64,000 nt of DNA from Xanthomonas bonasiae (GTDB lineage: Bacteria > Pseudomonadota > Gammaproteobacteria > Xanthomonadales > Xanthomonadaceae): assembly GCF_017163705.1 (NCBI RefSeq), contig NZ_JAFIWB010000003.1:186001-250000 (forward strand), written 5' to 3'. This document shows positions 13,113 to 54,929 of the stretch, one piece after another. The translations under genes and the position numbers were made by a program. Every line of letters starts with the position of its first letter. Position 1 is the first letter of the stretch. The notes under the pieces are model-generated. The model was given only the letters and a program-made list of their open reading frames with translations, did no database searches and was not told where the DNA came from.

Positions 13113-13139
13113 TAAAGCTTCCCGCGCATTGGCCGTTAT
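13113..13139 (+). promoter_or_regulatory. Sigma-28 (FliA) promoter for STAS-cheY-cheA
   Basis: TAAAGCTT (13113-13120), 11 bases, GCCGTTAT (13132-13139). This is close to the enteric/Pseudomonas FliA consensus TAAAGTTT-N11-GCCGATAA and lies 31 bp upstream of the STAS gene start. The remaining sequence back to the parP stop (12882-13112) is GC-rich and holds no gene I can support. Confidence 0.85.
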
Positions 13140-13170
13140 CTGCCCTAGAACCATTCCGTGCGGAGCAATG

Positions 13171-13479
13171 ATGAGCACAGTGACCCTTGGCGAAGATCTC
13201 GGCATCGAGACCAGCGCCGACCTGAAACAACGGCTGACCCCGTTCCTGGCGTCGGACGACGAGCTGCAGCTGGACGCCGGCGAGGTCCGCCGCATCCATA
13301 CCGCATCCGTGCAGGTGCTGTGCGCATTCGTCGATGCACGTCGGAAGGACGGCAAGAGCACTGTGTTCGCAACCTGCAACGACACGTTCCGCGACGCGGC
13401 ACGCCTGCTAGGGGTCAGCGCATCGCTGGGCCTTCCTGCAACCCCTGATAACCTGAAATCTGTGGAGAACGCCGCATGA
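13171..13479 (+). CDS. Small STAS-domain protein upstream of cheY2
   Basis: A 102-aa cytoplasmic protein with a STAS-like fold: LQLDAGEVRRIHTASVQVLC corresponds to the central strand and helix, where anti-anti-sigma factors carry a phosphorylatable Ser. Here the position reads HTAS. STAS proteins relay signals through partner kinases or bind ligands. There are two adjacent ATGs (13168, 13171); the second is better spaced from CGGAG at 13161-13165. The stop overlaps the cheY2 ATG (ATGA), so the two are coupled. A sigma-28 promoter lies just upstream. Its partner is unknown; a link to CheA2 or CheY2 is inference from position. Confidence 0.8.
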   Translation: MSTVTLGEDLGIETSADLKQRLTPFLASDDELQLDAGEVRRIHTASVQVLCAFVDARRKDGKSTVFATCNDTFRDAARLLGVSASLGLPATPDNLKSVENAA

Positions 13480-13841
13480 GCGCACGTATTTTGGTGGTGG
13501 ACGATTCGGCGTCGATGCGCCAGATGGTCTCCTTTGCCCTCACTTCGGCCGGTTTCGCGGTCGAGGAAGCCGAAGACGGCCAGGTCGCCCTCGGCCGCGC
13601 CCAGGGCCAGCGCTTCAACGCGGTGGTCACCGACGTCAACATGCCGAACATGGACGGCATCTCGCTGATCCGCGCGCTGCGCCAGCTGCCGGACTACAAG
13701 TTCACGCCGATGCTGATGCTGACCACCGAGTCGGCGGCGGACAAGAAGTCCGAAGGCAAGGCCGCCGGCGCCACCGGCTGGCTGGTCAAGCCGTTCAACC
13801 CGGAACAGCTGATCGCCACCGTCCAGAAAGTCCTGGGCTGA
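13476..13841 (+). CDS. cheY: CheY, chemotaxis response regulator (second copy)
   Basis: A 121-aa receiver domain. D9-D10 form the acidic pocket, D53 in VVTDVNMPNMDG is the phosphoacceptor, T in MLTTES and K in WLVKPFNPEQ complete the active site. It diverges from the first CheY and resembles the CheY-like receivers encoded directly upstream of a receptor-linked cheA in many proteobacteria. It is coupled to the STAS gene by overlap and followed after 34 bp by cheA2. Whether it binds the motor, or acts as a phosphate sink for the first CheY, cannot be read from sequence. Confidence 0.93.
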   Translation: MSARILVVDDSASMRQMVSFALTSAGFAVEEAEDGQVALGRAQGQRFNAVVTDVNMPNMDGISLIRALRQLPDYKFTPMLMLTTESAADKKSEGKAAGATGWLVKPFNPEQLIATVQKVLG

Positions 13842-13875
13842 TTTCCTCTCCACCCTTTTTCCGGATTCCCCGCCC

Positions 13876-52546: not shown

Positions 52547-52598
52547 CCCCACTGCGGTACTGCCTCGCCATCGCCCAATCCGCTGCACGGAAACGCCA

Positions 52599-54860
52599 AT
52601 GAACGTCTTCAAGCAACTGAAAATCCGCGACAAGCTGATCTTCGCATTCGCCCTGACCACGCTGCTGACCGTGATCCTGGGCGTGTTCACCTATTCGCGC
52701 ACCACCTTGGCGATGTCCGAGCTCAAGCGCATCGAGCTGGATTGGGTGCCGGCCACGCAGGCGCTGGCCGAAGTGCGCGCGCAGCTCGGCGAGTTCCGCA
52801 CCTACGAGCTGGCGCAGATCGCGCGCGCCGACGACCCGGAAGCGATGGCCGACTATTTCAAGCGCATGCAGAAGGTGCGCACGGAAGTGGCCAAGAACCA
52901 GGCCATCATCGAACGGGTGATGCTGGAAAAGACGCAGCGGCAGATGTATGCCGGGGTCAAGGAAAAACTGGACGCCTACCTGCAGGCCAACACGCTGATG
53001 GGCGATGCGATGCGCGGCGGCGACGTCGCCGCGGCGCAGGCCGTCTCCGACAAGCAGTCGCGGCCGCTGCGGCGCGAACTGTTCGAACGGATCGTGGCGC
53101 TGACCGACTACAACGTCGCCCAGCTGAACCAGGAAATGGACACCATCAACGCGCAGCTGGCGCGCACCAAGCTGCTGATCATGAGCCTGCTCGCACTGGC
53201 CATCGCGGCCGCAGCCAGCGTCGGCTGGATGATTTCGCGCGGCATCGCGCGCCAGCTCGACGCGGCACGGCAACTGTCGCAGGCCATCGCCCGCGGCGAA
53301 CTGGACAGCGCCGTACGCGCGCGCTCCAACGACGAGGTCGGCCAGCTGATGGGCGACATGCTGGACATGCGCAGCCGCATCCGCGAGGTGATCGATGCGC
53401 AGAACCTGATGGCGCAGCGCCACGAACAGGGCACGATCAGCTATCGCATGGACGCGACCGCCTTCCCCGGCGACTACGGGCACATGGTCAAGGCCACCAA
53501 CGATCTGGTCGCCTCGCACGTGGCGGTGAAGCTGCGCCTGGTGCAGATCATCCAGCGCTACGCGATCGGCGACCTGTCCGAGGACATGGAGCGCCTGCCC
53601 GGCGAGAAAGCCGTGCTGACCGAGGCGATGGACACCGCCAAGGCCAACCTGACCGCGATGAACGTACAGGTCAAGCAACTGGCCGAAGCCGCGGCGATCG
53701 GCGACTTCAGCGCGCGCGGCGACGCCGAGCGCTTCCAGTACGATTTCCGGGCGATGGTGCAGAACCTCAACGCGATGATGGAGGTCAGCGACCGCACCCT
53801 CGGCGAGCTGTCGCAGCTGCTGCAGGCCATCGCCGCCGGCGACCTGAGCGTGCGCATGCATGGCGAGTTCCACGGTGTGTTCGCCAAGATGCGCGACGAC
53901 GCCAATGCCACCGCCGAGCAGTTGGCCGATATCGTCGGCCGCATCCAGGGCGCAGCGGCCAGCATCAACGTCGCCTCGTCGGAAATCGCCGCCGGCAACG
54001 ACGACCTGTCGCGGCGCACCGAGCAGCAGGCGGCCAGCCTGGAAGAGACCGCCGCCTCGATGGAGGAACTGACCTCCACCGTCAAGCAGAACGCCGAACA
54101 CGCGCGCCAGGCCAACCAGCTTGCGGTCGGTGCGGCCGCGGTCGCCTCGCAGGGCGGCGACGTGGTCGGCCAGGTGGTCGCCACCATGAGCGGCATCGAG
54201 ACCTCGTCGAAGAAGATCGCCGACATCATCAGCGTCATCGACGGCATCGCCTTCCAGACCAATATCCTGGCGCTCAACGCCGCGGTGGAAGCGGCGCGCG
54301 CCGGCGAACAGGGCCGCGGCTTCGCCGTGGTCGCCAGCGAGGTGCGGACGCTGGCCCAGCGCTCGGCCGGCGCGGCCAAGGAGATCAAGGGCCTGATCGA
54401 CGACTCGGTGACCCGCGTCGCCGAAGGCTCGGCCCTGGTCGATCGCGCCGGACAGACCATGCAGGAGATCGTGTCCTCGGTGCAGCGCGTCACCGACATC
54501 ATGGGCGAGATTTCCGCCGCCTCGCAGGAGCAGTCGCTGGGCATCGAGCAGGTCAACCAGACCGTGACCCAGATGGACGAGGCCACGCAGCAGAACGCGG
54601 CGCTGGTCGAGGAAGCCACCGCCGCGGCGCGTACGCTGCAGACCCAGGCCGGCCAGCTCAGCGCCACCGTCGCCGAGTTCAAGCTGGACCCGCAGGCCAG
54701 CGCACCGGCGCCGCAGGCCGCGCCTGTCGCAAAAGCCAGGCCGTCCGTGCGCGCCAAGGCCTCTGCGGTGGCGACCGCACCGCGTGCGCCTGCGCGCATC
54801 CGCAGCGTGACGGGCACGGCACGCGCCTCCGCCACCGAAGACCAGTGGCAGGAGTTCTGA
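52599..54860 (+). CDS. Methyl-accepting chemotaxis protein MCP13 (4HB type)
   Basis: A 753-aa receptor. TM1 ~13-33 (LIFAFALTTLLTVILGVFTY); 4HB domain; TM2 ~192-213; HAMP (GELDSAVRARSNDEVGQLM); linker of the AQRHEQGTISYRMDATAFPG class; signalling domain with tip ~547; tail QWQEF. No promoter was seen in the 52 bp upstream, so it is likely transcribed with the lone 4HB gene. A long Ala/Pro/Arg tail connects the signalling domain to the pentapeptide, as in the other tethered receptors. Confidence 0.94.
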   Translation: MNVFKQLKIRDKLIFAFALTTLLTVILGVFTYSRTTLAMSELKRIELDWVPATQALAEVRAQLGEFRTYELAQIARADDPEAMADYFKRMQKVRTEVAKNQAIIERVMLEKTQRQMYAGVKEKLDAYLQANTLMGDAMRGGDVAAAQAVSDKQSRPLRRELFERIVALTDYNVAQLNQEMDTINAQLARTKLLIMSLLALAIAAAASVGWMISRGIARQLDAARQLSQAIARGELDSAVRARSNDEVGQLMGDMLDMRSRIREVIDAQNLMAQRHEQGTISYRMDATAFPGDYGHMVKATNDLVASHVAVKLRLVQIIQRYAIGDLSEDMERLPGEKAVLTEAMDTAKANLTAMNVQVKQLAEAAAIGDFSARGDAERFQYDFRAMVQNLNAMMEVSDRTLGELSQLLQAIAAGDLSVRMHGEFHGVFAKMRDDANATAEQLADIVGRIQGAAASINVASSEIAAGNDDLSRRTEQQAASLEETAASMEELTSTVKQNAEHARQANQLAVGAAAVASQGGDVVGQVVATMSGIETSSKKIADIISVIDGIAFQTNILALNAAVEAARAGEQGRGFAVVASEVRTLAQRSAGAAKEIKGLIDDSVTRVAEGSALVDRAGQTMQEIVSSVQRVTDIMGEISAASQEQSLGIEQVNQTVTQMDEATQQNAALVEEATAAARTLQTQAGQLSATVAEFKLDPQASAPAPQAAPVAKARPSVRAKASAVATAPRAPARIRSVTGTARASATEDQWQEF

Positions 54861-54902
54861 AGGCGGCAGCGGCAGCGGCCCATGCCGCGCCTTGTTCCGG
54901 CG

Positions 54903-54929
54903 TCAATTTCGCCCGGCGCCGGCCGATAA
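54903..54929 (+). promoter_or_regulatory. Sigma-28 promoter for cheR-cheD-cheB
   Basis: TCAATTTC (54903-54910), 11 bases, GCCGATAA (54922-54929, perfect -10), 28 bp before the cheR ATG. Confidence 0.9.

What the first reader, a model, noticed from the sequence alone, without database searches (positions are those of the whole stretch)
13113..54929. Fourteen FliA-type promoters with invariant 11-bp spacing turn the whole receptor block into a sigma-28 regulon
Sites at 13113, 18909, 21475, 23861, 26908, 33127, 35934, 38882, 41937, 45728, 46421, 49498, 51882 and 54903 all fit TNAA(N4)-N11-G(C/T)CG(N)T. Each lies in an intergenic region just upstream of a gene start. The -35 splits into TAAAG and TCAA(G/T) forms. 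The repeated exact spacing makes chance unlikely and defines a species-specific consensus. It also brings non-chemotaxis genes (beta-barrel, CxC protein, OB-fold protein) into the regulon.
Basis: partly seen in the sequence, partly recalled or inferred. Interest (0 to 1): 0.75.

Follow-up and report, generated by a model that had tools for sequence, protein, structure and literature searches.

The report
Flagellar promoters across a receptor array
Most units of a bacterium's row of chemical-sensor genes carry their own copy of the standard flagellar gene switch, so the sensors are probably made only when the flagellum is being finished; this is a solid example of a known control scheme, with some new members and a hint of how the row evolves.

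Summary
All 14 sites are present as written, between genes, on one strand, with 28-238 bp from the -10 to my chosen ATG. A 16-position matrix finds 16 sites on the gene strand and 0 on the other, against 0.15 per strand for permuted matrices. In 12 same-genus genomes the sites recur before the same genes in 127 of 135 cases.

They are canonical sigma-28 (FliA) promoters. Spacing and consensus equal the E. coli ones, TAAAGTTT-n11-GCCGATAA (PMC2859248 Table 1), so they are not species-specific. fliA lies in the same window.

Corrections: 11 of 13 receptors are covered, not all; mcp1 (16482) and mcp6 (30562) lack a good site. The motif also precedes flgM, fliC, fliD, receptor-like genes and c-di-GMP enzymes elsewhere.

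Extra: receptors recombine in their shared signalling region. Four clear recombinants keep their promoter with their sensor; two others have no good site.

Verdict: real, a new member of a known kind. Transcription was not tested.

The parts
5174..5923 (+). fliA, sigma-28
   Evidence: NCBIfam FliA 293.1 bits (cut-off 201), TIGR02479 265.5 (cut-off 189.6); closest solved chains are FliA
4243..4269 (+).
   Evidence: 12 of 12 same-genus blocks and 19 of 24 loci from other genera of the family
8964..8990 (+).
   Evidence: 12 of 12 relatives
13113..13139 (+). FliA-type site before STAS-cheY-cheA (ATG 13168)
   Evidence: 12 of 12 relatives
16482..18713 (+). mcp1, receptor without a FliA-type site; terminator-like hairpin follows at 18750
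18909..18935 (+). FliA-type site before mcp2 (19028-21193)
   Evidence: 2 of 2 relatives with mcp2
21475..21501 (+). FliA-type site before mcp3 (21588-23798)
   Evidence: 10 of 11
23861..23887 (+). FliA-type site before mcp4 (about 23996-26656)
   Evidence: 11 of 11
26908..26934 (+). FliA-type site before the barrel gene (27061-27828, Pfam Phenol_MetA_deg) and mcp5 (27848-30223)
   Evidence: 10 of 11
30382..30389 (+). -10-like GCCGATAG before mcp6 (30562-32805) with a degenerate -35
   Evidence: 8 of 10 relatives compared keep GCCGATA at 182-203 bp before the start (site start) with weak -35s; 7 of 11 relatives score over 13 (some labels poor)
33127..33153 (+). FliA-type site before mcp7 (33392-35644)
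   Evidence: 7 of 7
35934..35960 (+). FliA-type site (weakest of the 14) before mcp8 (about 36137-38716)
   Evidence: 8 of 10
38882..38908 (+). FliA-type site before the CxC gene (38954-39454) and mcp9 (ends 41715)
   Evidence: 8 of 8 over 13 bits, 4 of 8 over 15
41937..41963 (+). FliA-type site before mcp10 (about 42017-44722)
   Evidence: 5 of 5
44696..44722 (+). degenerate FliA-type site TACAAAAA-N11-GCCGATAG overlapping the stop of mcp10, before ycgR (44781-45563)
   Evidence: score only 11.5, but -10 identical in the window and 12 of 12 relatives and -35 in 11 of 12 (G003 differs by one base); coding may explain part of this; ycgR by PilZN
45728..45754 (+). FliA-type site before cheW (45821-46312)
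   Evidence: 12 of 12
46421..46447 (+). FliA-type site before the small OB-like secreted protein gene (46515-46895) and mcp11 (46997-49378)
   Evidence: 12 of 12
49498..49524 (+). FliA-type site before mcp12 (49558-51810)
   Evidence: 6 of 10 with 11-nt spacing, the other 4 with 12 nt
51882..51908 (+). FliA-type site before a 4-helix-bundle sensor gene without signalling domain (51977-52546) and mcp13 (52599-54860)
   Evidence: 8 of 8 before the 4HB gene, 4 of 4 directly before mcp13 where the 4HB gene was not found
54903..54929 (+). FliA-type site before cheR (54958-55824) and cheD
   Evidence: 12 of 12

Best explanation
The sites are ordinary sigma-28 promoters. FliA-RNA polymerase recognises the -35 (TNAAGTTT-like) and -10 (GCCGATAA-like) octamers held 11 nt apart and starts transcription just downstream. 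The units of the chemotaxis array that carry one (7 single receptors, 4 receptors behind a partner gene, STAS-cheY-cheA, cheW, cheR-cheD, motA) therefore switch on late, when FlgM is exported and FliA is free. A further site inside flhF probably lets FliA raise its own expression through flhG-fliA. Shown here: sequence, position, strand bias and conservation of the sites, the FliA gene, and a FlgM gene elsewhere in the genome. Inferred: promoter activity, timing and FliA dependence.
For: Match to the published E. coli consensus and spacing. 16 against 0 strand bias and about 100-fold excess over permuted matrices. 8-15 gene-strand hits against 0-1 on the other strand in each of 12 relatives' blocks. 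The 14 sites recur in 127 of 135 relative-gene cases over 13 bits, 118 of 135 over 15 bits (counted). Nine core positions are 99.4% identical to the window's, against 62% in the spacer, 58% upstream and 72% downstream (sites were chosen by score, which inflates the core value). FliA over its cut-offs. The same motif precedes flgM, fliC and fliD in this genome. Wobble positions of flhF are frozen at the flhG site, 21 of 21 against 13-17 of 20 in the five stretches before it. sigma-70-like sites are no commoner than in shuffles (0 and 1 found against means 2.0 and 1.0). In X. oryzae, chemotaxis genes fall in rpoN mutants, as a RpoN-FleQ-FliA cascade predicts (PMC7970052, passages).
Against: No transcript data. 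The loose genome pattern is not enriched genome-wide: 43 matches against 55 for the reversed control. mcp1 and mcp6 lack good sites. 8 of 135 relative-gene cases lack a site over 13 bits with 11-nt spacing (4 of these have a 12-nt form). One family genome without a detected fliA (G123) keeps a site before its RR-GGDEF gene, and one with fliA (G069) has none there. The matrix was trained on the window.
Confidence: 0.93

Rival explanations
1. The sites are copies carried along by tandem duplication of receptor genes, kept by descent and not by function.
For: The array consists of paralogous receptors that recombine.
Against: Among the 14 sites no spacer or flank column within 15 bases reaches 9 of 14 for one base, while octamer columns do. 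Orthologous sites keep the core while the spacer diverges. Sites also precede unrelated genes: motA, STAS, barrel, CxC, cheW, cheR, flgM, fliC.
Confidence: 0.03
2. The block is read mainly from other promoters (sigma-54/FleQ or sigma-70) and the FliA sites are minor or redundant.
For: mcp1 and mcp6 lack good FliA sites; rpoN mutants of X. oryzae lose chemotaxis expression, which could be direct.
Against: sigma-70-like sites are no commoner than in shuffles. Terminator-like hairpins after mcp1, mcp6, cheW and mcp11 argue against one long transcript. I did not scan for sigma-54 sites.
Confidence: 0.08
3. Chance matches in a long G+C-rich region.
Against: Strand bias, spacing, position and conservation.
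Confidence: 0.005

Closest known systems
E. coli sigma-28 (FliA) promoters, e.g. aer TAAAGATA-n11-GCCGACAT (PMC2859248, passages)
   Same: Octamers, 11-nt spacing, receptor genes as targets
   Different: Here most units along a 38-kb array of 13 receptors have their own; C or G replaces A at -35 position 2 in 8 of 14
Tandem chemoreceptor cluster of Xanthomonas next to the flagellar genes (PMC3542200: 5 tandem MCPs in X. albilineans, 14 in X. axonopodis pv. vesicatoria)
   Same: Same kind of cluster and location (passages)
   Different: FliA does not occur in that paper's main text
RpoN2-FleQ-FliA flagellar hierarchy of X. oryzae (PMC5550985)
   Same: FliA as last tier (passages)
   Different: The words 'consensus' and 'GCCG' do not occur in its main text; receptor promoters not seen in the passages
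FliA control of c-di-GMP genes (bifA in Pseudomonas putida, PMC5300878; ycgR and yhjH in E. coli, recalled)
   Same: c-di-GMP genes partly under FliA (title and start of abstract in the listing)
   Different: Here other enzymes, RR-GGDEF and GAF-GGDEF-EAL, with sites conserved in relatives

Membership tests
sigma-28 (FliA) promoter | -35 TAAAGTTT-like octamer | tested here: met
   13 of 14 have T(A/C)AA, one TGAA
sigma-28 (FliA) promoter | -10 GCCGATAA-like octamer | tested here: met
   bases 1, 3, 4 and 6 (G, C, G, T) invariant in 14 of 14; base 2 is C in 12, T in 2
sigma-28 (FliA) promoter | 11-nt spacer | tested here: met
   16 sites at 11 nt, 0-4 at other spacings; 12 nt in some relatives
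sigma-28 (FliA) promoter | transcription start shortly after the -10, dependent on FliA | not testable with these tools
   no transcript data
FliA/WhiG sigma factor | score over the curated cut-off | tested here: met
FliA-FlgM late-flagellar regulon | FlgM and flagellin genes behind the same motif in the genome | tested here: met
   flgM, fliC and fliD
FliA-FlgM late-flagellar regulon | release of FliA by FlgM export | not testable with these tools
   needs experiment

The most novel reading that the evidence does not exclude
The receptor array is a set of promoter-plus-sensor cassettes. Homologous recombination in the shared HAMP/signalling region deletes, swaps or inserts receptors, and because the cross-over lies downstream of the sensor, a recombinant keeps whatever promoter its sensor had, usually a FliA promoter. 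The bacterium can thus reshuffle its sensory repertoire while staying under flagellar control. FliA may at the same time switch on c-di-GMP enzymes and the YcgR brake, coupling the receptors to motor braking.
Probability: 0.42. Interest if true: 0.5.

Novelty: new member of a known kind. Interest (0 to 1): 0.38.

Why it matters
It gives a conservation-tested sigma-28 promoter set for Xanthomonas chemotaxis. It separates receptors that should follow flagellar timing from two that may not, adds unstudied envelope genes and c-di-GMP enzymes to the predicted regulon, and suggests why receptors in a recombining array have promoters of their own.

Tried and rejected
Rejected: a species-specific consensus (equal to E. 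coli). Rejected: a functional TAAAG/TCAA dichotomy; the form mostly follows the gene. A tendency for A at position 2 to go with G at position 5 (53 of 57 sites with A) is confounded by descent and was left. Rejected: copying with flanks. Tried without gain: genome-wide counting with a loose pattern (43 hits against 55 in the reversed control); a natural fliA-less control (of three family genomes with the RR-GGDEF gene and no fliA hit, G025, G076 and G123, only G123 was readable, and it points the other way); a search for papers on recombining tandem receptors (1 paper, on Shewanella arrays, seen as a listing). Not done: sigma-54 site scan, structure prediction of the CxC and OB-like proteins.

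Counts of conserved sites were redone by script.

Selection: the array blocks were read in 12 of 19 same-genus genomes; G001, G004, G005, G010, G012, G013 and G015 were not fetched for this. Orthologues are best-hit labels. In the family searches 15 of 45 RR-GGDEF matches and 43 of 73 fliA matches had no locus and were not read; I take the two searches to have drawn the same 149 genomes. Of the 28 pattern hits outside the window I placed 12 next to motility, receptor-like, FIST or c-di-GMP genes; one (L018) is ambiguous. The other 16 were not resolved; among their neighbours are an AdoHcy hydrolase, a PapD-like chaperone, a DUF6976 protein and a propeller protein, and some lie inside open reading frames. 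L050-L053 were fetched but not analysed.

Full report
What was checked. The 14 sites exist exactly as described. At 11-nt spacing 13 sites on the + strand reach 12 of 16 matches and none on the - strand; other spacings give 0-3 per strand. A 16-column matrix gives 16 + and 0 - hits above 15 bits; permuted matrices average 0.15 per strand and Markov sequences 0.24 in all. All 14 lie between my gene models, with 28-238 bp from the -10 to the chosen ATG.

The surroundings. The window lies in a 5.38-Mb genome. One array protein, the barrel, finds six named relatives, five Xanthomonas and one Hydrocarboniphaga. The window holds flhF, flhG, fliA, cheY, cheZ, cheA, motA, a STAS-cheY-cheA unit, 13 receptors, cheW, ycgR, cheR and cheD. 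FliA passes its family cut-offs and its best solved relatives are FliA chains.

What has a promoter. Receptors 2, 3, 4, 7, 8, 10 and 12 have their own site; 5, 9, 11 and 13 follow a partner gene that has one (barrel, CxC, OB-like, sensor-only 4HB). mcp1 has none. mcp6 keeps GCCGATAG but no good -35; its relatives are mixed, 7 of 11 over 13 bits. The last overlaps the upstream receptor's end, so coding may explain part of its conservation, although that receptor's last residues differ in some relatives.

Conservation. In blocks from 12 same-genus genomes, the 14 sites recur before the same genes in 127 of 135 cases above 13 bits, or 131 if 12-nt spacers at mcp12 are admitted; above 15 bits it is 118. 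The flhG, motA, STAS, cheW, OB and cheR sites are present in 12 of 12. The 4HB site is present in 8 of 8 genomes with the 4HB gene and stands directly before mcp13 in the other 4 (G006, G008, G009, G011). Misses: mcp3 in G007, barrel in G003, mcp8 in G007 and G017, mcp12 in four (12-nt form). The flhG site is also present in 19 of 24 loci from other genera of the family.

Outside the window. A loose pattern gives 43 hits, 15 of them in the window, all on the + strand; the reversed control gives 55, so counts alone prove nothing (the cheW site does not fit that pattern). By context, hits lie before flgM, fliC, fliD, four receptor-like genes (one with the signalling domain, three with sensor and HAMP domains as far as the stretch goes), a FIST-domain gene and GGDEF/EAL genes. 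Sites over 15 bits are kept for GAF-GGDEF-EAL in 18 of 18 relatives read, for RR-GGDEF in 13 of 13 in the genus and 22 of 25 loci from other genera, for FIST in 7 of 8 and for another GGDEF gene in 8 of 13. The RR-GGDEF gene occurs with fliA in 42 of the 45 genomes that have it; 31 of the 104 genomes without it have fliA.

How it works. The simplest reading is the textbook one: sigma-28 polymerase transcribes the late flagellar and chemotaxis genes once FlgM leaves. The consensus and spacing match the E. coli ones printed in Table 1 of PMC2859248 (passages). Activity and timing are inferred.

Why units have their own. The array recombines. In G018 a receptor has the mcp8 sensor with an mcp9 tail, and the mcp9 sensor and CxC gene were not found in the block. 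In G017 and G003 mcp9 ends as mcp10; in G016 mcp7 ends as mcp8. Two G014 controls do not switch in the tail. In these four the site before the sensor (or before its CxC partner) is present. Against a simple rule: in G007 an mcp8 sensor with an mcp9-like tail (60% identity) has no good site, and in G003 an mcp6 sensor with an mcp2 tail has none. This is an inference from a few clear cases; I did not map break points or count events on a tree. Many weaker 'chimera' flags rest on low tail identity and are not used.

Literature. Among the papers listed (20 of 285; 11 of 11; 5 of 5; 15 of 21; 2 of 2; 4 of 4; 1 of 1; 8 of 17), no title or abstract start was on sigma-28 promoters of the Xanthomonas receptor array. 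Most subscription papers are not in that library. The tandem array itself is known (PMC3542200, passages).

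Noticed in passing
window 51977-52546: A stand-alone four-helix-bundle sensor without signalling domain precedes mcp13; found at 55-95% identity in 9 other same-genus genomes and not in others, where in four the promoter stands directly before mcp13.
   Followed up: partly
receptor C-termini, window 16482-54860: 9 of 13 receptors end in an xWxxF pentapeptide (WQEF, WHEF, WQTF, WAEF), like the CheR/CheB tether of E. coli receptors (recalled).
   Followed up: no
L027, L154-L167, L197-L221: A response-regulator GGDEF gene with a FliA-type site conserved over several genera of the family and found mostly in genomes with fliA.
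   Followed up: partly
window 4243-4306: The end of flhF is frozen at all 21 wobble positions in 13 genomes where it overlaps the flhG promoter and start.
   Followed up: yes
window 18750, 32875, 46358, 49412: Terminator-like hairpins after mcp1, mcp6, cheW and mcp11, fitting separate transcription units. A further hairpin with a T run between the OB-like gene and mcp11 (about 46917-46957), seen by eye and not reported by the scan, could weaken read-through into mcp11.
   Followed up: no
G003 block (L096-L098 joined), receptors ending at 24541 and 36103: Two receptors 97-100% identical over their middle and different in the tail, a sign of recent gene conversion or duplication.
   Followed up: no
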